Assembly: GCF_008704935.1 (NCBI RefSeq)
Contig: NZ_CP023692.1
Location: 248,001 to 312,000, forward strand
Direction of reading: 5' to 3'
DNA: 64,000 nt
Origin: Streptomyces vinaceus
GTDB taxonomy: Bacteria; Actinomycetota; Actinomycetes; Streptomycetales; Streptomycetaceae
Below the pieces are notes generated by a model. The model made no database searches, had not been told where the DNA came from, and saw only the letters and a list, made by a program, of their open reading frames with translations. Positions 30,149-43,707 of the stretch are shown here, piece after piece (the stretch's first letter is position 1; each line of letters starts with the position of its first letter). A program made the translations under genes and the position numbers.

Positions 30149-30780
30149 GCAGCACCGAGGACTCCCTCACCGCCGTGCCCGCCACGGCTGGTGCGGGAAC
30201 GGGCGGGGAGGCGAGTGGGGAGGCTGCCGCCGAGACCGCCGCCGAGACGGGACGCGAGGCCATCGTCCGCGCCGCCCGCCGCGCGTTCACGCTGCGGCCG
30301 TACGCCGAGGTCACGATGCGCGGGATCGCGGCCGACGCCGGGGTGAGCCCCTCGCTGATCGTCAAACGCTTCGGCAGCAAGGAAGCCCTCTTCAACACGG
30401 TCGTCGACTTCCGGGCGGCCGCCGACGAACTGTTCGCCGCCCCGCGCCCCGGCCTCGGCCGGCACCTGGTCCTGACGATGGTCGACCTGCGGGACCGGCT
30501 GCGCGGGGACCCGCTGCTGCGGGTCGTGTTCTCCCTGGGCATCGAGGACGAGCGCACCCTGCTGCGGGCGCGTTTCCGCGAGCAGGTCACCGACCGGCTG
30601 GCCACCTCCCTGACGGGGCCGGACGCGCAGCTGCGGGCCGAGCTGATCGCCGGTCAGCTGCTGGGCCTCGGGGCCACCCTGAGCCTGCACCGCCCCGACG
30701 GCGCCGGCTCCCACGCCGGCCCCGAACGCCTGGCGGACCTCTACGCCCCCGGCCTCCAGCGCCTCATCGACGGAGCCTGA
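30145..30780 (+). CDS. TetR family transcriptional repressor
   Basis: A 211-residue regulator. The N-terminal 35 residues are Ala/Glu-rich and disordered. The TetR helix-turn-helix follows at about 36-85 (GREAIVRAARRAFTLRPYAEVTMRGIAADAGVSPSLIVKRFGSKEALF). The C-terminal ligand domain is helical. It is coupled to the MFS gene and likely represses it through the palindrome at 28507-28554. Its last 17 bases overlap the end of the convergent WD40 gene of the peptide operon, so transcription of the two units meets head-on. Confidence 0.85.
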   Translation: MSSTEDSLTAVPATAGAGTGGEASGEAAAETAAETGREAIVRAARRAFTLRPYAEVTMRGIAADAGVSPSLIVKRFGSKEALFNTVVDFRAAADELFAAPRPGLGRHLVLTMVDLRDRLRGDPLLRVVFSLGIEDERTLLRARFREQVTDRLATSLTGPDAQLRAELIAGQLLGLGATLSLHRPDGAGSHAGPERLADLYAPGLQRLIDGA

Positions 30781-32476
30781 GGACGTCGCCCCGGTCCGCC
30801 GGGACCGGGTACACCGAGCCGTCGTACGAGGCCGCGAGGAAGGTGTCCGCCTCCGGCGCGTAGTGGAGGGCGGAGATGCCGGCGGTGGTCGGCTTGCCGA
30901 CGTACGGCCAGGTCCCGGTGCGGGTGTCGTAGACGGCGACCGTGCCCCCGTAGGAGCCGGTGGCCACCAAGGCCCCGTCGGCGGAGGCCGCGACGCACTT
31001 GACGGAGTGGTCGTGCGGGGTGGGCACGGCCGTCGCGCCCTCGCCGTCCCACAGCCTCAGGAGCAGGTCGCGGCTGACGCTGGCGAAGCGGCCGCCCGGC
31101 AGCGGTGCGCAGCCGTTGGCGATCCGGGTGTGCGCCTCCTCCACGCGGGCGGTCTCCTCAAGGGTGCGGGTGCTGAACCAGCTCGCCGAGGCGTCCGCGC
31201 ACACCGCGAAGATGCTCTCGCCGGAGACGGCCAGCCCCTTCACCGCGTTGGCGAGCAGCGGGAGCGTCGCCACGTGCTCGACCGTCCCGTCCGCCCGTAC
31301 GGCGAAGACGAGGCCCTCGCCCGTGTAGGCGCCCACGACGACGTGCGGTACGCCGTCGCGCTGGAAGGCGGCCGCGCAGTTCAGCGGGGAGCGGTGCTGG
31401 TGGAGCGTCTCGCCCGTGTCGGCGTCGAAGACCCGGCCCAGTTGCCCGCCGGTGAGCACCCGGCCGCCCACGGGGACCAGGAAGTTGCACAGGCTGTCCG
31501 GGCGTCCGCCCTCGGCCCCGTCGACGCGGACGACGCCCGCGTCCCCGACGGTGTAGGTGCGCCCGTCCGGCAGGGTGGTGACGGCGTTCACGCAGCGGGT
31601 GCCCTCCACCAGGTCCAGGTTCCAGGTCGCGGAGGCGGTGTCGTACGTCGCGTACGTGGAGCCGAAGGTGGCGAAGGCGAGGGTGTGGTCGTCGAGGAAG
31701 GCGCAGGAGCGGGCCCAGATCTCGGCGGGGAACTCGGCGGTGTGCAGCGGACGCAGTCCCTCGGCGGTGTCCCAGACGCGCAGGGAGCGGTCGTAGCTGA
31801 GGCTGACGAGGGCGCCGGTCGCGGAGTTGAGGACGAGGCGCTTGATGCCGGCGTCGTGGGCCGGGAAGTACTCGGTCGCGCCGTCCTCGATGCGGATGAT
31901 GGCGCCGTCGTCGTTGCCGGCGAAGACCACACCGCCGCGTGTGATCGCGATGGTGTCCGTCTCGACGCCGTCGAGGTCGATGTCGGCGGTCATCTCGCCG
32001 GTGGCGAGCGACCAGCGCTTGATCGTCCCGTCGTCGCTGGAGGAGATCAGCTCGCCGGTGGCGGGCAGCCACTCGACGGAGATCACGTCGGCGGTGTGGC
32101 CCTCGAAGCGGCGGACCACGGCGCCCGTGAAGTCGTAGACGCGGACCGTGTGGTCGCGGGAGGCGGTGGCGACCAGTTCCCGCTCCGGGTGGAAGACGGA
32201 CATCTCCACGTCGTCCTTCTGGTCTCCCAGCACCGCGCGCAGGCGCAGGTCGGGGACCGACCACAGGCGCGCGGTGTAGTCGCTGGAGGAGGTGACGAGC
32301 AGCGAGCCGTCCGGGCTGAACGCGACCTGGTTGACCAGATGGTCGTGGACGCCGCGGGCCAGGAACGTGTGCTCGGCGGCGTCCCAGAGGATGACCTGGT
32401 TGTCGTAACCGGCGGTGGCCACGTAGCGGTCACCGAAGGTGGCGACCCCGCTGATCGGGCCCTGGTGCTTGATCAC
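30764..32476 (-). CDS. WD40 beta-propeller protein (ToxC-like position)
   Basis: A 570-residue soluble protein made of WD40-type repeats throughout, for example GDRYVATAGYDNQVILWDAA, DGSLLVTSSSDYTARLWSVP, ERELVATASRDHTVRVYDF, TGELISSSDDGTIKRWSL and SADGALVATGSYGGTVAVYDTR. That gives about 13 blades, enough for two propellers. No signal peptide or enzyme domain is seen. The GTG start overlaps the stop of GTP cyclohydrolase II (GTGA), with GGAGAAG eight bases upstream. In toxoflavin clusters a WD-repeat protein (ToxC) also follows a GTP cyclohydrolase II (ToxB). It is the last gene of the peptide operon. Confidence 0.82.
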   Translation of the reverse strand: MIKHQGPISGVATFGDRYVATAGYDNQVILWDAAEHTFLARGVHDHLVNQVAFSPDGSLLVTSSSDYTARLWSVPDLRLRAVLGDQKDDVEMSVFHPERELVATASRDHTVRVYDFTGAVVRRFEGHTADVISVEWLPATGELISSSDDGTIKRWSLATGEMTADIDLDGVETDTIAITRGGVVFAGNDDGAIIRIEDGATEYFPAHDAGIKRLVLNSATGALVSLSYDRSLRVWDTAEGLRPLHTAEFPAEIWARSCAFLDDHTLAFATFGSTYATYDTASATWNLDLVEGTRCVNAVTTLPDGRTYTVGDAGVVRVDGAEGGRPDSLCNFLVPVGGRVLTGGQLGRVFDADTGETLHQHRSPLNCAAAFQRDGVPHVVVGAYTGEGLVFAVRADGTVEHVATLPLLANAVKGLAVSGESIFAVCADASASWFSTRTLEETARVEEAHTRIANGCAPLPGGRFASVSRDLLLRLWDGEGATAVPTPHDHSVKCVAASADGALVATGSYGGTVAVYDTRTGTWPYVGKPTTAGISALHYAPEADTFLAASYDGSVYPVPADRGDVLRLRR

Positions 32477-33144
32477 GCGATCTTCTCCTTCAAGCTGATG
32501 GTGTGCAGCGTCTTGTCGGCCTTCGCCGTGAGGTAAGAGATGTTGTGGGGGTTGGCGAACACCCCCGTCCGCACGGTGTTGCGGACGGCGATGCCGTGCC
32601 GGGTCAACTGGCCGCACTTGTCGGGGTTGTTCGTGAGCAGATCGACCTCGGTGATCCCGAGCGTCCGCAGCATCTGCGCCGCGGCCGTGTAGTCCCGCAG
32701 GTCGTCGCCGAGGCCGAGGGCGCGATTGGCCTCGTACGTGTCCAGGCCGTCGTCCTGGAGCCGGTAGGCGTCGAGCTTGTTGTAGAGGCCGATGCCGCGC
32801 CCCTCCTGCCGCAGGTAGAGCAGCACCCCGCCGACGCCCTCGATCATCCGCAGCGCCTCGTGCAGCTGCGGGCCGCAGTCGCACCGGGCGGATCCGAACA
32901 CGTCACCGGTCAGGCACTCCGAGTGGAGGCGGACCAGGGGGACTCCGTCGGCCGGGCGGACACCGAGTTCGAGGGCCAGGTGCTCCTTGCCGTCGGCCAG
33001 TCCGTCGAAGGTCGTCACCCGCGCGTCGAACTGGGGTCCGGTCCCGGAGCCGATCGGGACGCGCACCTCGGAGCGCACCGTGGCACGGGACCGGAGGGGT
33101 CCGAGGCGGACGGCCGCGCGGGATGTTCCGGTTACTTCTTGCAT
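32473..33144 (-). CDS. ribA: GTP cyclohydrolase II
   Basis: A 223-residue stand-alone enzyme. The zinc ligands appear as C-x10-C-x-C (SECLTGDVFGSARCDCGPQL, near residue 75). RQEGRGIGLYNKLDAYRLQD near 112 holds the catalytic Arg and Tyr region, and DLLTNNPDK near 166 follows. It opens the imidazole ring of GTP to give formate, pyrophosphate and a diaminopyrimidine phosphate. That is the first step of riboflavin and toxoflavin synthesis. No ribB, ribD, ribE or ribH gene lies nearby, which argues for a dedicated role in this operon. AGGAGG lies seven bases upstream. The start overlaps the MFS stop by 13 bases. Confidence 0.92.
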   Translation of the reverse strand: MQEVTGTSRAAVRLGPLRSRATVRSEVRVPIGSGTGPQFDARVTTFDGLADGKEHLALELGVRPADGVPLVRLHSECLTGDVFGSARCDCGPQLHEALRMIEGVGGVLLYLRQEGRGIGLYNKLDAYRLQDDGLDTYEANRALGLGDDLRDYTAAAQMLRTLGITEVDLLTNNPDKCGQLTRHGIAVRNTVRTGVFANPHNISYLTAKADKTLHTISLKEKIA

Positions 33145-34439
33145 GGTGGTTCCTCCTGGACGTTCGATGCGGGGGCGACCGGCGCGGACGGCCGGGCCCA
33201 GTCCGTGCGGCCGCGCCTCAGGTACCAGAGGGCGGAGCACGCGCCGAGACCCAGCACGAGGAAGGTCCCCCGTGCTCCGACGGTCTCGGTCAGCGCCGGG
33301 GTGACGGCGGGCGAGAGCAGCGCGGCGCCGCCGGTGATGAGCCACATCAGCCCCGAGGCGCGGCCCAGCACCGGGCCGGGCAGGTACTTGACCCGCATCA
33401 TCACGACGGTGCTCAGGACGGCGCCCTCGCCGAGCGCGCCGAGCGCGACCGCCGCGAGGAACACCTGCCACCACGGGAGCGCGAGGAGCAGCAGCGACAG
33501 GCCGCAGGCCGTCATGCCCAGCGTCAGGGAGATCCGCGGGCGGATCCGCTTGCGCTGGGCGACGAGCAGGTTGCCGGCGAGCATGCACGCGTTCATCAGG
33601 GTGACGACGGCGCTCACGGAGCGGTCGGAGAGGTGCCAGGTGTGGCCCAGCGAGTAGACGACCAGGGCCTGGAAGCCCGCGCCACAGGTGACGGCGAGCA
33701 CCACCTGCACGATGAGCATGTCGAGGACGCGGCGGTCCGCGACGATCGCCTTCCAGCCCTCGGAGAGCTTCCAGTTGCGGCCCGCGCCCGGGGCGCCCGG
33801 CAGGACGCGGGGCGGGTGCACCCCCATCGCCCAGACGGCGACCGGCGCGAAGAAGGTGGCCAGGTTGAGCCACAGCAGACCCTCGTAGCCCAGGAAGGGC
33901 AGGCACAGGGAGAAGACCACGGGGCCGACGAGGGTGGCGGCGAAGAAGAGGCTGTTGAGCGTCCCTCGCGCACGCACCGGGCAGTCGGGGAACATCCCCG
34001 GCACTCCGGTCATCCAGCCCGTCCGGTACGCGGCTCCGCCGATCGCGACGAGCAGCGCGCAGACGAAGAGCGCGGTCGTGGTGGGCGCGCCCGCGTGCAG
34101 GACGAGGTTCATCACCAGGGCCGCGGCCGCCTGCAGCAGCAGACCCGGTACGACCAGCGCCCGCGGTCCCCACCGGTCGGCCGCCCAGCCCAGGGAGGGT
34201 GCGAGGAGCATGCCGAGGGGGACCGCGGCGGCCAGCAGGGTCATGACGGCGAGCGAGCCGGTCAGCCGGTAGGCGAGCAGCGGCAACGCCGTGGCGTACA
34301 TCGCCTCGCCGATGTTGTTGAGGGCGTTTCCCGCGGCGAACACGGTGAACCGCGGGTTCTGGAAGGGCGAGGGTTCGACCACCGCATCCGAACCGGGGCC
34401 GGGTCCGGCCTTGGGCGTGGTGGCCGCGGGAGGGCTCAT
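33132..34439 (-). CDS. MFS transporter of the peptide operon
   Basis: A 435-residue membrane protein with about 12 transmembrane helices. NPRFTVFAAGNALNNIGEAMYATALPLLAY is helix 1 and LGWAADRWGPRALVVPG is the motif-A-like loop after helix 2. It resembles MFS exporters of the enterobactin/macrolide-efflux class. The ATG overlaps the stop of the upstream propeller gene (ATGA). The gene ends in TAA, uncommon in this genome type, inside the ribosome-binding region of ribA. In this setting it is the obvious candidate to export the product of the operon or to give self-resistance; that is inference. Confidence 0.85.
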   Translation of the reverse strand: MSPPAATTPKAGPGPGSDAVVEPSPFQNPRFTVFAAGNALNNIGEAMYATALPLLAYRLTGSLAVMTLLAAAVPLGMLLAPSLGWAADRWGPRALVVPGLLLQAAAALVMNLVLHAGAPTTTALFVCALLVAIGGAAYRTGWMTGVPGMFPDCPVRARGTLNSLFFAATLVGPVVFSLCLPFLGYEGLLWLNLATFFAPVAVWAMGVHPPRVLPGAPGAGRNWKLSEGWKAIVADRRVLDMLIVQVVLAVTCGAGFQALVVYSLGHTWHLSDRSVSAVVTLMNACMLAGNLLVAQRKRIRPRISLTLGMTACGLSLLLLALPWWQVFLAAVALGALGEGAVLSTVVMMRVKYLPGPVLGRASGLMWLITGGAALLSPAVTPALTETVGARGTFLVLGLGACSALWYLRRGRTDWARPSAPVAPASNVQEEPPCKK

Positions 34440-36334
34440 CGTGCGCCGGCGTTCGGGTAGTCGCCGGTGGAGGCGGGCAGCCACAGGTCGCGCACGGCGG
34501 TCAGGACGCTGTCCTCGCGCTCGCGGTCCAGCCGGTAGAGCCGGAGGAATCCGCCCCGGCCGCCGATGACGACGTACGCGGTGCCGTCCTGGCCGCGCAG
34601 CAGGGCCATGCCCTTGGGGAAGTCGGGCAGATCCTCGTGGAGCCCGAGGAGTTCACCGGTTGCGTGGTCGTACGCCGCGACCTGGAGGCCGTACGTGATC
34701 GCGACGAGGACGCCGTCGGCGATGACGCAGTTCTCACTGGTGTTGTCGAGCAGTTCGGTGAAGCGCTGGTCGAGTTGGGGCTCACCGACCTTGAACTCCT
34801 TGATGCCGCCGCCACCGGTGGCGCGTACCCGGTCGCCGTCGGTCAGGAGGCGCTTGGGGTAGCCGCCGAGTCCGGTGGTCCAGGTGGCCTCGCCGTCCGC
34901 GGAGTAGGCGGTCATCACCCCGTTGCGGGTGGCGATGAGCCGGCTGCCGTCCTCCAGGTAGGCGCTCGCCCAGGCGCTGGCGGGCAGGTCGTCGATCCGG
35001 GACAGCTCTACACCGGTCGCGGCGTCGAGCTCGATCGCGCCGGCGTTGCAGGCGACGAGCAGCCGGCCGCCGTCGGGGGACCGGCTGAGCGTGTGCGAGA
35101 CGGCGGGCATCCGCCGCTCCCACAGCACCTGGCCGGCGGCGGAGACGCGGCGTACGGTCCCCGGCCAGAAGACTCCCGCCCAGCCGTCGTCGAGGGTGAC
35201 GAGGCGGCGGGTGAAGCCGAGGCCCGAGAACTCCTGTCCGGTCAGGACGAGCGCCGGGTGGCCCGGGACCTGTTCGACCAGGCGCAGTACGGCGGTGCCG
35301 TCGTCGGTGGCCGCCAGCAGGGCGCGGTCGTCACCCGGGACGGGCTGGAGGTCCCACACGCACTGGCGCTCGTAGCCGAGCCGGGTGCGTACGGCGCCGT
35401 CCGCCGTCAGCGCGGTCACCTCGCCGTCCTGGGTGAGGGTGTAGACGTCTCCGTACTCGTCGACGGTGATGTCGATGATCTGGTGGCTGAAGCCGCCGAC
35501 CCGCTTGGCCACGCGCAGTTCGGGGTCGGTGTTGTCGAAGATCAGCAGCTCGCCGTCGAAGCCGCCGGTGTACGCGGTGGAGAAGTCGGGCGAGAAGACG
35601 AGGCCTTCGACGTCGTTGCGCGCGTAGTCGAAGCGTTCGCCGACGGTGCCGTCGAGACCGACCGTGATCACGCCGTTGGCGATGTTGCGGGTCTCCCCCA
35701 GGCCGGCGTCGCCGAGGGCCCACAGGCGGTTGTGGCGGGCGTCGTAGACGACCCGGTGGACGTTGGACGTGTCGACCTGGACGACCGTCGGGAAGGAGAG
35801 CTCCGGCAGCGAGCCGAGGTGGATGCGGCCGGAGCGGTCGGAGACGGCGTGCACGCCGGGGGCGTCGGTGCAGAACCATTCGAGCATGTCGTAGCCGTGC
35901 GGCCACTCGGTGATCCGCTCGACGGTGAAGGTCTCCAGATCGATGACGACCACCTGGAAGTACCCGTTGTTCGTGTAGAGCTTGCCGTCCCAGACGCCGA
36001 TGCCGCGGAGCATGGTGGGCGCGGGCTGCTCGCCTTCGAGGAGCAGCGAGGCGTCGGCGGTCGCGGCGGCGTCGAGGCGGTCGGAGAGCCGCAGGGTGTC
36101 GGCGTGCCAGCGGGAGATCGTGCCCGTCTTGTCGCGCGTGACGATCCAGTCGTCGACGAAGGTGACGGCGTAGATCGGGTCGCCGGCCGGGTCCTGCGCC
36201 GGGGCGGAGGAGTTGGACGAACGCAGCACGTTGAGATCGCGGTCGAGCCAGTGCAGACCGCCGCGGGCGTCCGCGCCCAGGAGGCCCCGGCCGGGACTGT
36301 TCACGATGCGGGTCAGGCGCTCCAGGTTCGCCAT
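34436..36334 (-). CDS. Large beta-propeller protein of the peptide operon
   Basis: A 632-residue soluble protein with no signal peptide. It has repeated beta-propeller blades that are not classical WD40, such as AVTFVDDWIVTRDKTGTISRWHADT, DARHNRLWALGDAGLG, VFSPDFSTAYTGGFDGELLIFD and SPDGGRLLVACNAGAIELDAATG. No catalytic motif was found. AGGGGG lies seven bases before the ATG. It is the first large gene after the three peptide genes, separated from them by 123 bases with a strong hairpin. With the WD40 protein at the operon end it makes two propellers in one pathway. A scaffold, peptide-binding or cryptic enzyme role is possible. Confidence 0.75.
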   Translation of the reverse strand: MANLERLTRIVNSPGRGLLGADARGGLHWLDRDLNVLRSSNSSAPAQDPAGDPIYAVTFVDDWIVTRDKTGTISRWHADTLRLSDRLDAAATADASLLLEGEQPAPTMLRGIGVWDGKLYTNNGYFQVVVIDLETFTVERITEWPHGYDMLEWFCTDAPGVHAVSDRSGRIHLGSLPELSFPTVVQVDTSNVHRVVYDARHNRLWALGDAGLGETRNIANGVITVGLDGTVGERFDYARNDVEGLVFSPDFSTAYTGGFDGELLIFDNTDPELRVAKRVGGFSHQIIDITVDEYGDVYTLTQDGEVTALTADGAVRTRLGYERQCVWDLQPVPGDDRALLAATDDGTAVLRLVEQVPGHPALVLTGQEFSGLGFTRRLVTLDDGWAGVFWPGTVRRVSAAGQVLWERRMPAVSHTLSRSPDGGRLLVACNAGAIELDAATGVELSRIDDLPASAWASAYLEDGSRLIATRNGVMTAYSADGEATWTTGLGGYPKRLLTDGDRVRATGGGGIKEFKVGEPQLDQRFTELLDNTSENCVIADGVLVAITYGLQVAAYDHATGELLGLHEDLPDFPKGMALLRGQDGTAYVVIGGRGGFLRLYRLDREREDSVLTAVRDLWLPASTGDYPNAGAR

Positions 36335-36378: not shown

Positions 36379-36407
36379 CCCGGGGAAAGCCGTCGGCTTT
36401 CCCCGGG
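36379..36407 (-). terminator. Intra-operon hairpin after the peptide genes
   Basis: CCCGGGGAAAGCCG and CGGCTTTCCCCGGG form a 14-base perfect inverted repeat around one base, giving a 13-pair stem with a 3-base loop in RNA. No T-run follows. It lies between the last peptide gene and the propeller gene, where it can act as a partial terminator or mRNA stabiliser and favour peptide expression. Confidence 0.75.
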
Positions 36408-36457: not shown

Positions 36458-36499
36458 TCAGATGTCGTGACGGACGACACGGCGAATGATCTTCTTCAC
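36458..36499 (-). CDS. Tiny peptide 3, MKKIIRRVVRHDI
   Basis: Thirteen codons starting at GTG, encoding MKKIIRRVVRHDI. AGGAGG ends exactly eight bases before this GTG, the same spacing as in the other two peptide genes. An ATG six bases upstream (36505) would give MCVKKIIRRVVRHDI but would sit only two bases after AGGAGG, too close. The core [IV][IV]RRV[IV] and the C-terminal Ile are shared with its two neighbours. The peptide is cationic, with paired hydrophobic and paired basic residues. No known family was recognised. The stem-loop at 36379-36407 follows its stop. Confidence 0.75.
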   Translation of the reverse strand: MKKIIRRVVRHDI

Positions 36500-36556
36500 G
36501 CACATCACCTCCTCCGGCACGGGGAATTTCGGGATCGATCCCGTCCGGGACGGTAA

Positions 36557-36601
36557 TCAGATCTCGTTGCGGATGACGCGACGCACGATGCTCTTGGTCA
36601 T
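36557..36601 (-). CDS. Tiny peptide 2, MTKSIVRRVIRNEI
   Basis: Fourteen codons with ATG start and TGA stop, encoding MTKSIVRRVIRNEI. The ribosome site GAGAGGTGA gives eight bases of spacing to ATG. Compared with peptide 1 the gene differs at 10 of 45 bases. V/I exchanges and synonymous changes dominate inside the core RRV[VI], which suggests selection on the peptide. It lies 65 bases downstream of peptide 1 and 57 bases upstream of peptide 3. It is far below normal gene-finder limits and would be missed by automatic annotation. Confidence 0.78.
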   Translation of the reverse strand: MTKSIVRRVIRNEI

Positions 36602-36666
36602 GGAAGTCACCTCTCTCCTGGCTTCGCCGATATACGGGGGAAGTGATCGATCCGGCCTGGCAGGGC

Positions 36667-36711
36667 TCAGATCTTGTTGTTGACGACACGACGGACGACG
36701 TTCTTCTTCAT
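36667..36711 (-). CDS. Tiny peptide 1, MKKNVVRRVVNNKI
   Basis: Fourteen codons with ATG start and TGA stop, encoding MKKNVVRRVVNNKI. AAGGAGGTGA, a near-complete match to the 16S rRNA tail, lies before the ATG with eight bases between GGAGG and the start. The pattern of paired Val and paired Arg gives an amphipathic helix with V5, V6, V9, V10 on one face and R7, R8, N11, N12 on the other. It is the first of three tandem peptide genes and starts 46 bases after the FMN reductase stop. It could be a precursor of a modified peptide, a free cationic peptide or a signal; nothing in sequence decides this. Confidence 0.8.
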   Translation of the reverse strand: MKKNVVRRVVNNKI

Positions 36712-36757: not shown

Positions 36758-37330
36758 CTAGGCCGCGAGAGGGACCCGGTGGCCTCGTACGGCGGTGATG
36801 GTGGCGTCGACGAGGCCTTCCAGCTCCGCCACCACCGAGGGTTCGGTGATGGTCCCGTCGCGTCCGACCAGGCGTTCGGCGTTGCCGATGGCCACCCGCG
36901 GATGGTCGATCAGCACGGCGCCGCACCGTTCGAGCACCCTGCGGGTGTCGGACTGCGCATCGACGCCGCCGTACGTCCCGGGGGAAGCGGTGAGGAGCGC
37001 GACGGGCTTGCCGGAGAGGGAACTCGCCTTCCACGGCCGGGAGAGCCAGTCGAGGGCGTTCTTCAACGTCCCCGTCATCGCACCGTTGTAGGACGGTGTG
37101 CTGATGACCGCGGCGTCGGACGCGATGAGCAGTTCGCGTGCGGCGCTCACCGCTGCCGGCCCGGGACCCACGTCCAGGTCCTCGTTGTAGTGAGGCAGGT
37201 CGGCGACCCTTATCTCGGAGGTGTGGAATTCATCGGCACGCCGGTCGAGAATGCTGCGGATGGTGGCGAGAGCAGCACTGTTCACCGAGTGCCGACGCAA
37301 ACTCCCCGACACCAGAACGATCCTGGCCAT
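36758..37330 (-). CDS. NADPH-dependent FMN reductase family flavoprotein
   Basis: A 190-residue flavodoxin-like protein. MARIVLVSGSLRRHSVNSAAL contains the GSxRxxSxN phosphate-binding loop. STPSYNGAMTGTLKNALDWLSRP near residue 78 is the family FMN-binding segment, and LLTASPGTYGG near 113 follows. Members reduce FMN, quinones or azo compounds with NADPH. GGGAG lies six bases before ATG. It is the first gene of the peptide operon. An 8-pair GC stem (36729-36736 with 36750-36757) lies between its stop and the first peptide's ribosome site, so the peptides may be read from its transcript or from an internal start. Confidence 0.88.
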   Translation of the reverse strand: MARIVLVSGSLRRHSVNSAALATIRSILDRRADEFHTSEIRVADLPHYNEDLDVGPGPAAVSAARELLIASDAAVISTPSYNGAMTGTLKNALDWLSRPWKASSLSGKPVALLTASPGTYGGVDAQSDTRRVLERCGAVLIDHPRVAIGNAERLVGRDGTITEPSVVAELEGLVDATITAVRGHRVPLAA

Positions 37331-38544: not shown

Positions 38545-39315
38545 TCAGCCGGTGGCCTCGCCGAGGTAGGCGGCGCGGATGCGGGGGTCGTCCAGAAGCT
38601 CGTGGGCCGGGGCGTGCAGGGTGATCCGGCCCGTTTCCAGGACGTAGCCGCGGTCGGCGATCCTCAGGGCCTGGGCGGCGTTCTGTTCGACCAGCAGCAC
38701 CGTGGTGCCCTGGGTGTTGATCTCCTTGATGATCTCGAAGATCTGCGCCACGATCAGCGGCGCCAGGCCCATCGACGGCTCGTCGAGGAGCAGGAGTTCG
38801 GGGCGGCCCATCAGGGCGCGTCCCATGGCGAGCATCTGCTGCTCGCCGCCGGAGAGGGTGCCGGCCTGCTGGGTGCGCCGCTCCGCGAGGCGGGGGAAGA
38901 GGGCGAAGACCCGGTCCAGGTCCTCCTGCCGCAGCCGCTTGAAGCGGTAGGCGCCCATGTGGAGGTTCTCCAGGACGGTCATGTCGGCGAAGACCCTGCG
39001 GCCCTCCGGCGAATGGCCGATGCCGAGGCCCACGACCGCGTGGGAGGCAATGCCGTCGACGCGCTCCCCGCAGAACCGCACCTGTCCCGAAGTGGGCTGG
39101 TGCAGGCCCGAGATGGTGCGCAGGGTGGTCGTCTTGCCCGCGCCGTTGGCGCCGAGCAGGGCGACCACCTCGCCCTCGCGGACGACCATGTCGACGCCCC
39201 GCAGCGCGCTGATCGCGCCGTACGACACGTGGAGATCGGCGAGTTCCAGGATCGTCGGCGCCGGGGGCCGGGGCGTGGCGGCGGTCCTGTGCGGGAGGTG
39301 CGTCGGCGTGGTCAT
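38545..39315 (-). CDS. livF: Branched-chain amino-acid ABC transporter ATPase LivF
   Basis: A 256-residue ABC ATPase. Walker A is GANGAGKTT near residue 55, the signature LSGGEQQ near 157, and Walker B ELLLLDEPSMGLAP near 177, followed by LLVEQNAAQALRIADRGYVLETG. The EQNA form of the His-switch region and the short length mark LivF. It powers uptake of leucine, isoleucine and valine with LivG. The start overlaps the livG stop by ATGA. It is the last gene of a five-gene operon. Confidence 0.93.
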   Translation of the reverse strand: MTTPTHLPHRTAATPRPPAPTILELADLHVSYGAISALRGVDMVVREGEVVALLGANGAGKTTTLRTISGLHQPTSGQVRFCGERVDGIASHAVVGLGIGHSPEGRRVFADMTVLENLHMGAYRFKRLRQEDLDRVFALFPRLAERRTQQAGTLSGGEQQMLAMGRALMGRPELLLLDEPSMGLAPLIVAQIFEIIKEINTQGTTVLLVEQNAAQALRIADRGYVLETGRITLHAPAHELLDDPRIRAAYLGEATG

Positions 39316-40181
39316 CGGGGCTCTCCTTGCCGGGAGTCGGTCTCGGAGGTTCCGAGGTAGGCCTCCACGACCGCCGGGTCGCGCTGTACCTCGGAGGGAG
39401 GACCGGAGGCGATGACCCTGCCGAAGTTGAGCACGGTCACCCGGTCGGCCACCGAGGTCACCAGCGGCATGTCGTGTTCGATCAGCAGCACGCTGATGTC
39501 GAGTTCACGGTTGATACGGCGGATCAGCGCGGCCAGTTCCCGCTTCTCGGTCGGGTTGGTGCCCGCCGCAGGCTCGTCCAGGAGGAGCAGCCGGGGGCCG
39601 GTGGCCAGTGCCCTGGCGATCTCCAGCCGCCGCTGGTCCCCGTACGAGAGGGAGTCGGCCCGCTCCTCGGACCGCCCGTCGAGGCCCACCAGCGCGAGCA
39701 GTTCCTGGGCCCTGGCCTCGGCGGCGCGTTCCTCCGCCTTCGCCCGCGGCAGGCCCAGCACGATGCCCAGCGGTCCGGAGCGGGTGGCGCTCTCCGCGGC
39801 GACCTTGACGTTCTCCAGCGCGGTCAGGGCGGCGAAGAGGCGGATGTTCTGGAAGGTGCGGGCCACGCCGAGCCGGTTGATGTGGTGGGGCTTGCGGCCG
39901 AGCAGGCTGTGCTCCGTACCGCCGTCGGTGCGCAGGAGTACGCGGCCCTCCTGCGGTGCGTACGCGCCGGTGAGGGAGTTGAACAACGAGGTCTTGCCGG
40001 CGCCGTTGGGGCCGATCACGGCGTGGATCTCGCCCCGGCACACCGTGAGGTCCACGTCGCAGAGGGAGACCAGGCCGCCGAAGCGCAGGGTCACTCCCGA
40101 CACCTGGAGGACGGGGGCCGGGGCGGAGCGGGCCGGGGCGGGTGCCGGGCCCGGGCGCGCCGCGAGTGTGGTGGTCGTCAT
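39312..40181 (-). CDS. livG: Branched-chain amino-acid ABC transporter ATPase LivG
   Basis: A 289-residue ABC ATPase with a 25-residue Ala/Pro-rich N-terminal extension. Walker A is GPNGAGKTS near residue 57, RTFQNIRLF near 107, the signature LSYGDQRR near 180 and Walker B LLLLDEPAAGTNP near 202, then LLIEHDMPLV. NPTEK and EHDM are the usual LivG forms. ATG at 40181 overlaps the livM stop by ATGA. It pairs with LivF as the second nucleotide-binding subunit. Confidence 0.93.
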   Translation of the reverse strand: MTTTTLAARPGPAPAPARSAPAPVLQVSGVTLRFGGLVSLCDVDLTVCRGEIHAVIGPNGAGKTSLFNSLTGAYAPQEGRVLLRTDGGTEHSLLGRKPHHINRLGVARTFQNIRLFAALTALENVKVAAESATRSGPLGIVLGLPRAKAEERAAEARAQELLALVGLDGRSEERADSLSYGDQRRLEIARALATGPRLLLLDEPAAGTNPTEKRELAALIRRINRELDISVLLIEHDMPLVTSVADRVTVLNFGRVIASGPPSEVQRDPAVVEAYLGTSETDSRQGEPR

Positions 40182-41596
40182 GATTCCTCCCGCGTACGGA
40201 CGGTGCGCCTGCGGCGCCTGGCGGGCAGGAGTCCCTGCGGGCGGTAGATCATCATGACCACCAGGAGGGCGCCCAGGTACATGAACCGGTCCTTCTGGTC
40301 CACCACGTCCTTGAGGCCGTGCGGCAGATAGGCCAGCAGTGCGGCTCCCAGCAGGACGCCGGGGATGGAGCCCATCCCGCCGAAGATCACGTAGGCGAGG
40401 ACCAGCACCGAGTACAGCAGCGGGAAGTTCTCGGGGTTGATGAACCCGACCTTGCTGGCGTAGACGGCGCCGGCGACCCCGGAGGTGGAGGCGCCGATGG
40501 CGAAGGCCATCAGCTTGTACTTCACCGTGTCCACGCCGTGCGCGGCCGCGGCGACCTCGTCCTCGCGGATTGCCTCCCAGGTGCGTCCGATCTTGGAGCG
40601 CACCAGCTTGCGGAAGACCAGCACCAGGCCCGTGATCAGGCCGATGAGCAGCCACAGGTAGTCCAGCGGGTCCAGGCCCCAGCGGTAGTGCACGGGGCCG
40701 ATGTCCACGGAGAAGTGCGGGATGCCGAAGACTCCGAGCGAGCCGCCCGTCACCGATTCGGCGTTCTTGGCGAAGAGGTAGATGATCTCGTGGAAGCCGA
40801 GGGTGACGATGGCGAGGTAGTCGCCGCGCAGGCGCAGGGTGGGGGCGCCGAGCAGGATGCCCGCGAGCAGGCACGTGAGCATCGCGACCGGGATGGACAG
40901 GAACGGGTTCAGCTCGAACGGCGGCTTGACGGGCAGTTGTCCGCTCCAGAAGGCGGTGCTGTAGCTGCCGATCGCGAAGAAGGCAACGAAGCCGAGGTCG
41001 AGCAGACCGGCCCAGCCGATGACGACGTTGAGTCCGAGGGCGAGCAGGATGTAGATGCCGACCCAGTCGACCAGTACCTGGTTGGTCGACCGGTCGAACA
41101 GCAGCGGCAGGAACACGGCCGCGGCGAGCCCGGCCACCACCAACGCCACGCGCAGCCGGGGACGGCCGTCGAGCGCCGGGCGGATCCTGGTCAGCGGAGC
41201 GGCGACGGCCCTGGCGCCGCAGGCCACGGCGCGGCGCGGGGCGGCGCCGAACTCGGCTACCGCCCACAGGGCCGCGGCCGCGCCGGTCCAGGCCCACAGC
41301 GCGGGTCCGGTGAAGGTCGTACGCAGCGAGAACAGCAGGTCGGCTCCGGATCCCTGCTCCCCCGTCATCACGGCCAGCAGGACGCCGACGGCGGTGAGGG
41401 CGCACAGCCTGCGCCAGCGCGGACGCCGGTACCAGGGGGCCCGGCGCAGGGCGGCCAAGGCCTCGGCCGAGGGGCGGGTGGGGCGGAAGGACGCGGTGGA
41501 CGCGCTGTACGCGGTGGGCTCCGTGGACGCGGTGGGTGCGGCGGGTGCCGTGGACCCGGTGGGTGCCGCCGTCCTGGTATCGCTCAGCATGCTCAT
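40178..41596 (-). CDS. livM: Branched-chain amino-acid ABC transporter permease LivM
   Basis: A 472-residue permease. The first 70 residues are a Thr/Ala/Pro-rich and basic cytoplasmic extension. Two or three extra hydrophobic segments come before the conserved core, which begins near residue 185 (YILLALGLNVVIGWAGLLDLGFVAFFAIGSYS). RLRGDYLAIVTLGFHEI near 263 and the coupling-helix region KIGRTWEAIREDEVAAAAHGVD near 345 mark LivM. The C-terminus ends RPQGLLPARRRRR. It forms the membrane channel with LivH. ATGA overlap with livH. Confidence 0.92.
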   Translation of the reverse strand: MSMLSDTRTAAPTGSTAPAAPTASTEPTAYSASTASFRPTRPSAEALAALRRAPWYRRPRWRRLCALTAVGVLLAVMTGEQGSGADLLFSLRTTFTGPALWAWTGAAAALWAVAEFGAAPRRAVACGARAVAAPLTRIRPALDGRPRLRVALVVAGLAAAVFLPLLFDRSTNQVLVDWVGIYILLALGLNVVIGWAGLLDLGFVAFFAIGSYSTAFWSGQLPVKPPFELNPFLSIPVAMLTCLLAGILLGAPTLRLRGDYLAIVTLGFHEIIYLFAKNAESVTGGSLGVFGIPHFSVDIGPVHYRWGLDPLDYLWLLIGLITGLVLVFRKLVRSKIGRTWEAIREDEVAAAAHGVDTVKYKLMAFAIGASTSGVAGAVYASKVGFINPENFPLLYSVLVLAYVIFGGMGSIPGVLLGAALLAYLPHGLKDVVDQKDRFMYLGALLVVMMIYRPQGLLPARRRRRTVRTREES

Positions 41597-42513
41597 GCCG
41601 TCCTCCCCAGCTTCGCGCCGAGGATGCCGGTCGGGCGGAACATCAGCACGACGACGAGGACCGCGAAGGCGGCGACGTAGCGCCATTCCTCGCCGAACAG
41701 CGGAACGTTGTAGGTCTCGACCAGGCCGAGGAGCATTCCGCCCAGCATGGCACCGCGGATGTTGCCGATGCCGCCGAGAACGGCCGCGGCGAAGGCGGTG
41801 ATGCCGGGGATGAAGCCCATGGTGAACGAGACCTGGCTGTTGAGTCCGAAGAGGAAGCCGGCGATTCCGCCGAGGACCCCGCCGATCACGAACGTACGGG
41901 AGACGATCCGGTCGATGTCGACGCCCATCAGGCCGGCGGCCTCGGGGTCCTGGGCGACGGCCCGGATGGCGGAGCCCAGCTTGGTACGGCGCACCAGCAG
42001 GTCGAGGCCGACGATCATCGCCAGCGCGGCGACGATCAGCAGCAGCTTGACGATGTCGACGGGTGCTCCGAGGACATGGAAGAGCACGCCGTTGTCGAAG
42101 AGCGCGGGCATGGCCTTGGGATCGCGCCCGAAGAGCTTGCCCGTGAGGTTGTAGAGGAAGAACGAGGCGCCGATGGCGCTGATCAGGAAGATCAGCGCAG
42201 GCGCGTTGCGCTTGCGCAGCGGCCGGTAGGCGACCTTCTCCAGGCCGAAGGCGGTGCCCGCCCCGACCAGGCCGGAGACCGCCAGGCCGAGGAGGACGAG
42301 CAGGACGGAGACCAGCCCGGAGGGGTGGCCGGGGGCGACCTCGGTGAGCACGATCAGCGCTCCGAAGCCGCCCAGCATGAACACCTCGCTGTGTGCGAAG
42401 TTGATCAGCTTGAGCACGCCGTAGACCAGGGTGTAGCCGATGGCGATCACGGAGTACAGCGCGCCGAGCGCGAGGCCCGGGACCAGGTAGTCGCGGAATT
42501 CCAGGAGTGTCAT
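41593..42513 (-). CDS. livH: Branched-chain amino-acid ABC transporter permease LivH
   Basis: A 306-residue permease with about eight transmembrane helices. Family features are GLALGALYSVIAIGYTLVYGVLKLINFAHSEVFMLGGF at the N-terminus, VAYRPLRKRNAPALIFLISAIG near residue 95, the coupling helix TKLGSAIRAVAQDPEAAGLMGVD near 180, and RPTGILG at the C-terminus. It is the membrane partner of LivM and lies six bases after the livK stop. Confidence 0.93.
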   Translation of the reverse strand: MTLLEFRDYLVPGLALGALYSVIAIGYTLVYGVLKLINFAHSEVFMLGGFGALIVLTEVAPGHPSGLVSVLLVLLGLAVSGLVGAGTAFGLEKVAYRPLRKRNAPALIFLISAIGASFFLYNLTGKLFGRDPKAMPALFDNGVLFHVLGAPVDIVKLLLIVAALAMIVGLDLLVRRTKLGSAIRAVAQDPEAAGLMGVDIDRIVSRTFVIGGVLGGIAGFLFGLNSQVSFTMGFIPGITAFAAAVLGGIGNIRGAMLGGMLLGLVETYNVPLFGEEWRYVAAFAVLVVVLMFRPTGILGAKLGRTA

Positions 42514-42519
42514 CGCCGG

Positions 42520-43707
42520 TCAGCCCGCGCTCACCAGTGTGTCGACGTCTCCCTTGAGGGTGATCCGGCCGCCCTTGACCTCGCTGAGGTAGATGCCGTT
42601 GCCGGCGAACTCGCCGTTCTCCTTGAACGAGAACTGCCGGGTGAGGCCCTTGTAATCGGCCTTCTTCACCTTCTCCAGGACGGCCTCGCGCCGCACGTCG
42701 CCGCCATCGCCGCCGCCGAGCGCCTTGATCTGCTCGATGATGAGGTTGGTGGCGTCGTAGGACTCGGCGGCGTAGAGGCCGGGCGCGGCCTTGTACTCCG
42801 TCTTGTAGTCCTCGGCGAACTGCTTGGTGCCCGGGTCGACGTTGGCGTCCAGGCACTGGCAGGTCAGCAGCCAGCCCTCGGCCGCGTCGCCGGCCAGCTC
42901 GGTGAACTTCTTGTCGTACGTCCCGTCGCTGGCGATCTTCGGCTTGTCGAAGCCGACGTCCTTGAGCTTCTTGGCGAACGGAGCGGCGTCCGAGTAGAGC
43001 CCGTTGTAGATCAGCGCGTCGGCGCCGGAGTGCTTCACGGCGGTGGCGGCCGCGGTGTAGTCGGGGGTCTTCGACGGGACGCTGGCCTTGACGACCTCGA
43101 CGCCGGCTTCCTTGAGCTGCTTCTCGGCGACCTTGGAAAGACCGACGCCGTACTCGCTCTTGTCGTCGACCACGTAGACCTTCTTGGTCTGGAGCCGCTT
43201 GGTGAAGTACGTGACCATGGCGCCGCCCTGGGCGTTGTCGTTCGGCACGGAACGCACGAAGGAGCGGAAGCCGAGCTCGGGAAGGCTCGGGTTGCTGGCG
43301 TGGGACACGGAGACCAGCCCGGCCTCCGAGTACAGCCGGCCCGAGGCCTTGGCCGCGCCGGAGAAGGCGGGGCCCACGAGACCGAGGACGCTCTCGTCGT
43401 CGATGAGCTTCTGCGCCGCGGCCGGGGACTGGTCAGGGGAGCCGGCGTCGTCGGACGCGGCGTACTCGACGTGGAAGGGCAGATCGCCGCGGGCGTTGGC
43501 CTGCTTGACGGCCAGTTTGACGCCGTTCTCCATGTTCACGCCGATCGCGGAGCTCTCGCCGGTGAGCGGACCCTGGAAACCGATCTTGTAGACCGCCTTT
43601 CCGTCGCTGCCGACGACGGCGGCACCGCCGCCCTTGTTGCAGCCGGTCAGCGCGGTCGCGCCCGTGACGACGAGTGCGGCGAACATGGACAACTTCCTGC
43701 GGTTCAC
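42520..43707 (-). CDS. livK: Branched-chain amino-acid binding lipoprotein LivK
   Basis: A 395-residue substrate-binding lipoprotein. The signal peptide ends in a lipobox (ALTGC, Cys near residue 23). The mature part has the periplasmic-binding fold of the Leu/Ile/Val type: IGFQGPLTGESSAIGVNMENGVKLAV near residue 42, GLVGPAFSGAAKA near 108, and KKVYVVDDKSEYGVGLS near 175. It delivers ligands to LivHM. GTG at 43707 has GGGAG five bases upstream. It opens the operon; the 211 bases upstream hold its promoter, with no clear operator seen. Confidence 0.92.
   Translation of the reverse strand: MNRRKLSMFAALVVTGATALTGCNKGGGAAVVGSDGKAVYKIGFQGPLTGESSAIGVNMENGVKLAVKQANARGDLPFHVEYAASDDAGSPDQSPAAAQKLIDDESVLGLVGPAFSGAAKASGRLYSEAGLVSVSHASNPSLPELGFRSFVRSVPNDNAQGGAMVTYFTKRLQTKKVYVVDDKSEYGVGLSKVAEKQLKEAGVEVVKASVPSKTPDYTAAATAVKHSGADALIYNGLYSDAAPFAKKLKDVGFDKPKIASDGTYDKKFTELAGDAAEGWLLTCQCLDANVDPGTKQFAEDYKTEYKAAPGLYAAESYDATNLIIEQIKALGGGDGGDVRREAVLEKVKKADYKGLTRQFSFKENGEFAGNGIYLSEVKGGRITLKGDVDTLVSAG

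What the first reader, a model, noticed from the sequence alone, without database searches (positions are those of the whole stretch)
36458..36711. Three tandem genes for 13-14-residue cationic peptides with a shared core
The minus strand carries three consecutive tiny genes encoding MKKNVVRRVVNNKI, MTKSIVRRVIRNEI and MKKIIRRVVRHDI. Each has a strong ribosome site with the same 8-base spacing and a TGA stop. The core [IV][IV]RRV[IV] and the final Ile are conserved, while the DNA differs (10 of 45 bases between the first two). This implies paralogous peptides under selection. They lie at the head of an operon with an exporter, so they may be precursors of a modified peptide, antimicrobial or signalling peptides. 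I recognise no described family.
Basis: partly seen in the sequence, partly recalled or inferred. Interest (0 to 1): 0.93.

Follow-up and report, generated by a model that had tools for sequence, protein, structure and literature searches.

The report
Tiny peptide precursors for toxoflavin-type enzymes
Three 13-14-residue peptide genes in a Streptomyces operon belong to a peptide family, found in actinobacteria and firmicutes beside one dedicated propeller protein and mostly beside relatives of toxoflavin-making enzymes, and they are likely the raw material that those enzymes would turn into a still unknown natural product.

Summary
The three tiny genes are real and at the stated places. Of 39 distinct loci carrying the downstream "prop1" double-propeller gene, 27 have tiny peptides of this kind (12-18 residues, 1-5 copies). 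Nine more end a larger, poly-Asp-bearing frame with the same motif, two are unreadable, and one lacks it. Loci with a ToxC-like gene but no prop1 in the stretch fetched give 1 chance-like hit in 19. Aligned on a shared Arg, 43 of 47 rows have Ile or Lys seven residues later. The family reaches Paenibacillus and Cytobacillus. Usual neighbours are GTP cyclohydrolase II (26 of 33 loci), a WD40 protein (29; 14 of them close to proteins named ToxC), an FGE-domain protein (24), flavin reductases and MFS exporters. Best reading: tiny ribosomal precursors of a new peptide natural product class. Prop1 is the likely peptide partner, and toxoflavin-type enzymes would join a GTP-derived heterocycle to the peptide instead of glycine. 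The precursor role rests on comparison alone; the chemistry is inferred and untested. Ten paper searches gave no description of it.

The parts
36667..36711 (-). tiny peptide gene 1, MKKNVVRRVVNNKI
   Evidence: kept in L037 (MKKNIVRRVVNNKI) and L038 (MKKNVVRRVINSRI)
36557..36601 (-). tiny peptide gene 2, MTKSIVRRVIRNEI
   Evidence: kept in L037 (MTKGIVRRIIRNEI) and L038 (MTKGIVRRVTRNEI)
36458..36499 (-). tiny peptide gene 3, GTG start, MKKIIRRVVRHDI
   Evidence: kept in L037 (MEKIVRRVVRHDI) and L038 (MKKIVRRVVRHDI, twice)
36380..36406 (-). strong stem-loop (12 bp stem) between peptide 3 and prop1; hairpins of unrelated sequence lie at this place in relatives
   Evidence: gap MFE -61.5, z -4.9; z of -2 or lower in 17 of 19 gaps folded
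36758..37330 (-). NADPH-dependent FMN reductase family gene, first gene of the operon
   Evidence: Pfam PF03358; relative in 13 of 33 prop1 loci
34436..36334 (-). prop1, 632 residues, predicted double beta-propeller, the gene that tracks the peptides
33132..34439 (-). MFS exporter, start overlaps prop1 stop
   Evidence: Pfam PF07690; start placed
32473..33144 (-). GTP cyclohydrolase II (ToxB-like; label recalled)
   Evidence: tblastn 60% to the L060 protein (PF00925); start placed
30764..32476 (-). WD40 double propeller, relative of proteins named toxoflavin biosynthesis protein ToxC; GTG start overlaps the GCH II stop

Best explanation
The three tiny genes encode members of a conserved short-peptide family that travels with the prop1 double-propeller gene, and they are likely ribosomally made precursors that prop1 would bind and that toxoflavin-type enzymes would modify into an exported natural product. 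Shown here: the frames, their conservation in actinobacteria and Bacillota, their near-exclusive link to prop1 in the loci examined, their usual company (GTP cyclohydrolase II, WD40 protein, FGE-domain protein, flavin reductase, MFS), and the same motif as the tail of a larger frame in other loci. Inferred: GTP cyclohydrolase II makes a diaminopyrimidine from GTP. The WD40 (ToxC-like) protein, with an FGE-domain protein (next door in most relatives, elsewhere in this genome), forms an N-N link as proposed for the toxoflavin type, but onto an amine or guanidine of the peptide instead of glycine. The shared Arg and the Ile/Lys seven residues later mark the site or the recognition element. Prop1 is the adaptor that brings the peptide. 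The flavin reductase supplies electrons, and the MFS protein exports the released product. The stem-loop after the peptides would keep the precursor in excess over the enzymes.
For: (1) Peptide or tail in 36 of 39 distinct prop1 loci: 27 tiny, 9 tails, 1 absent (L034), 1 contig edge (L045), 1 run of N (L056). Control: 1 of 19 loci with a ToxC-like gene and no prop1 in the stretch fetched. Fisher p 5e-11, computed after the fact. (2) Six distinct loci found after the motif was written all carry a member on reading: L132, L133, L134 tails; L136 two peptides; L137 and L138 one each. The strict expression alone caught only L136. (3) With the rows anchored on the Arg, position +7 is Ile or Lys in 43 of 47, even in 13 rows where more residues follow. 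(4) Same motif in Paenibacillus (L061, L062) and Cytobacillus (L063). (5) Copy number 1-5, with identical repeats in L029, L040 and L106 and diverged ones in the window. (6) Over 33 prop1 loci: WD40 29, MFS 26, GCH II 26, FGE 24, FMN reductase 13, flavin reductase 12. (7) Nine of the 120 listed relatives of the window WD40 protein, at 60-73% identity, are named ToxC by a source. (8) The window-type genomes whose operon lacks FGE (G000, G071, G697) each have an FGE relative of 54-56% elsewhere. (9) PMC9911603 section 11 proposes that the WD40 and/or FGE-like protein of the pseudoiodinine cluster joins the pyrimidine to glycine with an N-N bond. (10) Cytobacillus L063 adds an MNIO-family protein, a known RiPP modification family.
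Against: No translation, modification or product has been shown. The 39 loci are not independent: several are close relatives of each other. No RiPP recognition domain, peptidase or peptide transporter was found among the window operon proteins scanned. GCH II was not detected in 7 of 33 prop1 loci, of which only L043 clearly ends at a contig end; L042 has the peptide and prop1 but neither WD40, GCH II nor FGE within 21.9 kb. Fifteen of the 29 WD40 matches are at 24-29% identity only, so their ToxC kinship is weaker, though seven of them share the invariant columns of alignment A4. The window operon lacks an FGE gene, and no control was run for how common FGE relatives are in genomes without this operon. 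The +7 residue is Ile in 23 of 47 rows, which offers no side-chain amine, so the attachment site is unclear. pN/pS of 0.48 is only moderate constraint.
Confidence: 0.55

Rival explanations
1. The peptides are not substrates but tiny subunits or activators: they bind prop1 and switch on or stabilise the enzyme complex.
For: Close tracking with prop1, a shared Arg, and invariant acidic residues in 26 aligned prop1 proteins such as E102, D188, D241, E243, E534, E567.
Against: Up to five copies, and diverged copies within one genome, are odd for a subunit. The motif at the end of a larger frame with a poly-Asp linker looks more like a carried substrate.
Confidence: 0.2
2. They are leader peptides of a transcription or translation attenuator that senses arginine or an intermediate before the propeller gene.
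For: A hairpin separates the last peptide from the next gene: z of -2 or lower in 17 of 19 gaps folded, against simple shuffles; the tiny peptides are Arg-rich.
Against: Amino acid conservation across phyla with the +7 Ile/Lys position kept; in L048, L049 and L058 the peptide lies between GCH II and WD40 inside the gene row; nine loci carry the motif as the tail of a larger frame (six measured, 186-279 residues from stop to stop; three), which no attenuator needs; by eye the hairpins share no sequence and mostly lack a T run.
Confidence: 0.08
3. They are stand-alone cationic antimicrobial, signalling or toxin-like peptides that happen to lie in a metabolite operon.
For: Short and basic; an exporter is in the operon.
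Against: 1 hit in 19 related loci without prop1; the tail forms follow a poly-Asp stretch and are not cationic; the tiny forms are too short to hold a usual signal sequence; MFS proteins usually move small molecules (general knowledge).
Confidence: 0.07
4. The peptides serve as a reusable scaffold on which a small molecule is built and cut off, as in PEARL or PQQ pathways, so the final product keeps few peptide atoms.
For: Conserved decapeptide with variable flanks; a carbon-nitrogen hydrolase in 9 of 33 loci could release a product.
Against: No PEARL-type ligase or radical SAM protein among the proteins of prop1 loci that were scanned; other neighbours were not scanned. The hydrolase was not detected in the window-type loci.
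Confidence: 0.1

Closest known systems
Toxoflavin (tox) biosynthesis, ToxB/ToxC/ToxD (gene labels ToxB and ToxD recalled)
   Same: GTP cyclohydrolase II, a WD40 propeller with relatives named ToxC, and in 24 of 33 relatives an FGE-domain protein.
   Different: No ToxA methyltransferase or ToxE deaminase among the operon genes; extra prop1; ribosomal peptide genes. The glycine donor proposed for the related pathway (PMC9911603) would be replaced by a peptide. Tox operons of Burkholderia were not fetched for comparison.
Pseudoiodinine psd cluster of Pseudomonas mosselii (PMC9911603, passages and section 11 seen)
   Different: The passages name seven genes, two of them methyltransferases, and mention neither a peptide gene nor a second propeller.
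RiPPs in general (short precursor beside modifying enzymes and an exporter)
   Same: Small conserved precursor-like genes, several copies, hairpin after them, one locus with an MNIO enzyme.
   Different: No leader of usual length in the tiny forms (12-18 residues in all), no RRE domain or peptidase among the proteins scanned, modification untested.
PQQ (PqqA, recalled) as a very short ribosomal precursor
   Same: A peptide of about two dozen residues or fewer as raw material for a small molecule.
   Different: Different enzymes; no radical SAM or PqqD-like partner among the proteins scanned.
Bufferins and other MNIO RiPPs (PMC12452194, passages seen)
   Same: MNIO gene next to prop1 in Cytobacillus L063 only.
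   Different: No conserved Cys in the peptides; no MNIO match in the other 32 loci.

Membership tests
RiPP | ribosomally encoded precursor gene conserved beside the enzymes | tested here: met
   36 of 39 prop1 loci carry the motif; that it is a precursor is inferred
RiPP | post-translational modification of that peptide | not testable with these tools
   needs mass spectrometry
RiPP | known RiPP-modifying enzyme in the cluster | tested here: not met
   none among the window operon proteins scanned; MNIO only in L063, 1 of 33
RiPP | leader and core parts | tested here: inconclusive
   shared decapeptide with variable N-terminal part and, in 13 of 47 rows, 1, 3 or 4 further residues; tail forms have a long N-terminal part
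toxoflavin-type (ToxBCD) cluster | GTP cyclohydrolase II | tested here: met
   window 33144-32473
toxoflavin-type (ToxBCD) cluster | ToxC-type WD40 protein | tested here: met
   nine of 120 listed relatives, at 60-73%, named ToxC
toxoflavin-type (ToxBCD) cluster | ToxD-type FGE-domain protein in the cluster | tested here: not met
   not detected in the window operon; found elsewhere in the genome and beside prop1 in 24 of 33 loci
toxoflavin-type (ToxBCD) cluster | ToxA methyltransferase and ToxE deaminase (recalled) | tested here: not met
   the operon's genes are FMN reductase, prop1, MFS, GCH II and WD40; the rest of the window was not scanned for them
attenuator leader peptide | short frame first in the operon, directly before a terminator | tested here: not met
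   hairpin present but an FMN reductase gene precedes the peptides, and the peptide sits inside the gene row in L048, L049, L058
PEARL scaffold peptide | LanB-like peptide aminoacyl-tRNA ligase in the cluster (recalled) | tested here: not met
   none among the proteins scanned; not every neighbour was scanned

The most novel reading that the evidence does not exclude
A new class of ribosomal peptide natural products in which toxoflavin-type enzymes, led by two double-propeller proteins, weld a GTP-derived pyrimidine to a decapeptide motif through a nitrogen-nitrogen bond. This would make peptide-borne azapteridines from genes of only 12-18 codons, too short for ordinary gene annotation. Here a peptide has replaced glycine as the substrate, and a form carried on a larger protein and a leaderless form coexist in nature.
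Probability: 0.3. Interest if true: 0.95.

Novelty: new variant of a known kind. Interest (0 to 1): 0.82.

Why it matters
Frames this short fall below the length limits of usual gene finders (general knowledge), and the listed relatives of the neighbouring propeller carry only generic names such as BamB-like or WD40, so this cluster type would not be recognised as peptide-based. If the peptides are substrates, it links two fields kept apart so far, ribosomal peptide products and GTP-derived azapteridines. It would also give a genetic handle on how ToxC/ToxD-type proteins form N-N bonds, because a peptide substrate can be varied by mutation. It also predicts which of the ToxC-like clusters in Streptomyces make peptide products: those with prop1.

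Tried and rejected
Attenuator reading: considered because of the hairpin, lowered because of gene order and the tail forms. Possible prop1-like gene in L096 without a peptide: tested with BLASTP and hhalign, not a relative. Structure route: both propellers were predicted well (mean pLDDT 90.2 and 92.4) but the 50 Foldseek matches listed for each were generic tandem WD40 proteins, so no active site could be read from them. Profile comparison of the two propellers suggests distant common origin (probability 98.3), which repeat proteins can also give without it. Codon-position counts over all distinct 12-14-mers (1342/1255/1617) mix orthologues with paralogues and were not used. A class-wide draw gave 16 of 394 genomes with a match, of which only the window's own and one other Streptomyces were strong; the rest were weak partial propeller hits and were dropped. 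Literature: ten listings for combinations of fervenulin, toxoflavin, RiPP, GTP cyclohydrolase, WD40, FGE, PepSY and related words showed no description of this peptide family. Most subscription papers are not in that library, and Song 2023 (Org Lett 25:2918, cited in PMC12154649 for ToxC) was not seen at all.

Results against my own tests: of the six new loci, the strict expression caught only L136. L137 and L138 each miss it by one position, and my expression for the tails was written one residue too short and caught none; those five were found by reading the upstream DNA. The Arg is the anchor of the 47-row alignment, so its presence in every row is by construction; only the other columns are informative. 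Rows left out of the 47: repeats of a sequence already entered (copies in L041, L044, L057, L136 among them) and one L038 frame with a weak ribosome site. One short contig with a ToxC-like gene (L082, 3.4 kb) was scanned with a looser motif, without a hit, and left out of the 19.

Full report
What is there. The minus strand of the window carries three tiny frames with good ribosome sites at 36711-36667, 36601-36557 and 36499-36458. They follow an FMN reductase gene (37330-36758) and precede a strong stem-loop (36406-36380) and four genes: prop1 (36334-34436), an MFS protein (34439-33132), GTP cyclohydrolase II (33144-32473) and a WD40 protein (32476-30764). The last four overlap at their starts and stops, so one transcript is likely. 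The genome is a Streptomyces: its genus-mate G071 has a contig of the same length (126,142 bases) and prop1 identity (94%) as the Streptomyces roseus record found by name.

Relatives. Prop1 has a match in 10 of 295 genomes of the genus (the window's own included, one a weak partial match), 10 of 293 of the order (own included) and 27 named loci in genome contigs, among them Micromonospora, Pseudosporangium, Actinokineospora, two Paenibacillus and one Cytobacillus. In a class-wide draw only 2 of 394 genomes had strong matches, both in the genus. A search of 5.8 billion proteins gave 76 clusters at E up to 1e-60, with generic names or none. The close named relatives Streptomyces roseus (L037) and S. 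flavotricini (L038) keep all three peptides with amino acid changes, and the spacers between the genes differ in length (42-161 bases in the window, L037, L038 and L041).

Counts. I took 33 distinct prop1 loci: the window, L037-L063, L029, L034, L102, L106, L112. A strict scan found 46 tiny peptides in 24 of them, 1 hit in 19 loci with a ToxC-like gene but no prop1 in the 12-20 kb fetched (18 and L118 of the window's genome), and 1 hit in 998,681 bases of reversed sequence. Of the nine without a hit, six (L046, L051, L052, L054, L055, L060) have directly upstream of prop1 a frame that ends in a poly-Asp stretch and a tail such as GPDRDGVNPSK. That frame has a PepSY domain in L055 and resembles the L055 protein in L051, L052, L054 and L060; L046 gave no such match. 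L045 is cut by the contig end, L056 has a run of N, and L034 has a distant prop1 (33-37%) with none of the usual neighbours. Six further loci found later (L132, L133, L134, L136, L137, L138) all carry a tail or tiny peptide on reading; two more fetched with them repeat known loci. Together: 27 tiny and 9 tails in 39 loci. The motif was shaped on the first loci, the strict form caught one of the six new ones, and several of the 39 loci come from close relatives, so the p value of 5e-11 is only a guide.

The motif. I aligned 47 rows on the Arg, so the Arg column is full by construction. Position -1 is Val/Ile in 42 and Asp in 5; position -2 is Pro in 28, Ile/Val/Leu in 18, Gly in 1. Position +7 is Ile in 23, Lys in 20, Arg in 2, Val and Gln once each. 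In 34 rows +7 is the last residue; in 13 rows 1, 3 or 4 residues follow. Pooled pN/pS over 18 pairs is 0.48, computed on very few sites and with six pairs from within one genome.

The company. Over the 33 loci, tblastn at E up to 1e-6 found WD40 in 29, MFS 26, GCH II 26, FGE 24, FMN reductase 13, flavin reductase 12, carbon-nitrogen hydrolase 9, PALP 3, MNIO 1. Of the 29 WD40 matches 14 are at 61-100% identity to the L044 protein; 15 are at 24-29%, seven of which were aligned in A4 and share its invariant columns. Nine of the 120 listed relatives of that alignment, at 60-73% identity to the window protein, are named toxoflavin biosynthesis protein ToxC; most of the others are called WD40 repeat protein or have no name (2291 matches, 120 shown). 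In the 17 aligned proteins His 4, 44 and 127 are invariant, which would suit a metal site (inference). In the 15 of 16 FGE-domain proteins where the GGSF motif was found, none has two Cys in the 26 residues from it, so they are probably not formylglycine-generating enzymes (the need for that Cys pair is recalled). The window operon has no FGE gene. Its genome has an FGE relative (55%) in another cluster with GCH II, a WD40 protein (27%) and a methyltransferase (L118), and the sister genomes G071 and G697 likewise have one elsewhere; genomes without this operon were not checked for comparison.

Prop1 marks the peptide clusters. In Streptomyces, 27 of 392 genomes have the ToxC-like gene at E up to 1e-60. 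Loci without prop1 have other genes nearby: PALP and an ATP-grasp amino acid ligase in L098, a glycosyltransferase and a nucleoside hydrolase in L114, a methyltransferase and a GDSL lipase in L104. This suggests one heterocycle-forming core with exchangeable partners, the tiny peptide plus prop1 being one of them (inference from three loci looked at in detail).

Mechanism. PMC9911603 (passages and section 11) proposes for pseudoiodinine that the WD-40 and/or FGE-like protein conjugates the GTP-derived pyrimidine with glycine through an N-N bond, and reports that mutants of these two genes are rescued by 1,6-didesmethyltoxoflavin. PMC12154649 (one passage) calls ToxC a new oxidase family proposed to facilitate N-N bond formation. 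By analogy I propose that here the peptide takes the place of glycine and that prop1, perhaps a distant sister of ToxC (hhalign probability 98.3), presents it. Which atom of the peptide is used is open. A hairpin after the peptides in loci of both phyla (17 of 19 gaps folded have z of -2 or lower) fits a precursor made in excess.

Certainty. Shown: frames, conservation, linkage, tail forms, neighbours. Strong inference: the frames are translated and act with prop1. Weaker: substrate rather than activator. Weakest: the N-N-linked heterocycle on the peptide.

Noticed in passing
G000:C1:3349500-3369400 (L118), outside the window: The same genome holds a second cluster of this enzyme type (GCH II 71%, FGE 54%, a WD40 protein at 27%, PALP, methyltransferase, 2-oxoglutarate oxygenase) without prop1 or peptide.
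   Followed up: partly
L063:10903-12470: In Cytobacillus firmus the prop1 gene is followed by an MNIO-family (MbnB/TglH/ChrH) gene and a further gene without a Pfam match.
   Followed up: partly
L046, L051, L052, L054, L055, L060, L132, L133, L134: Frames with a poly-Asp linker (PepSY-like in all but L046, by Pfam or by similarity to L055) end in the same motif that elsewhere is a free 12-18-residue gene.
   Followed up: yes
L029:9089 and 9294; L137 near 9088: Peptide variants MRKIVRRCPWPWIS (two copies) and MRKIVRCTPWPWIS have an unusual Pro-Trp-Pro-Trp tail yet keep Ile at +7.
   Followed up: no
L034:8560-10338: A distant prop1 relative (33-37%) stands without GCH II, WD40, FGE or peptide.
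   Followed up: no
L098 and L114: ToxC-like clusters without prop1 carry PALP plus ATP-grasp ligase, or glycosyltransferase plus nucleoside hydrolase, hinting at further product types.
   Followed up: partly
window 38545-43707: A branched-chain amino acid ABC transporter gene row lies upstream on the same strand as the peptide operon.
   Followed up: no
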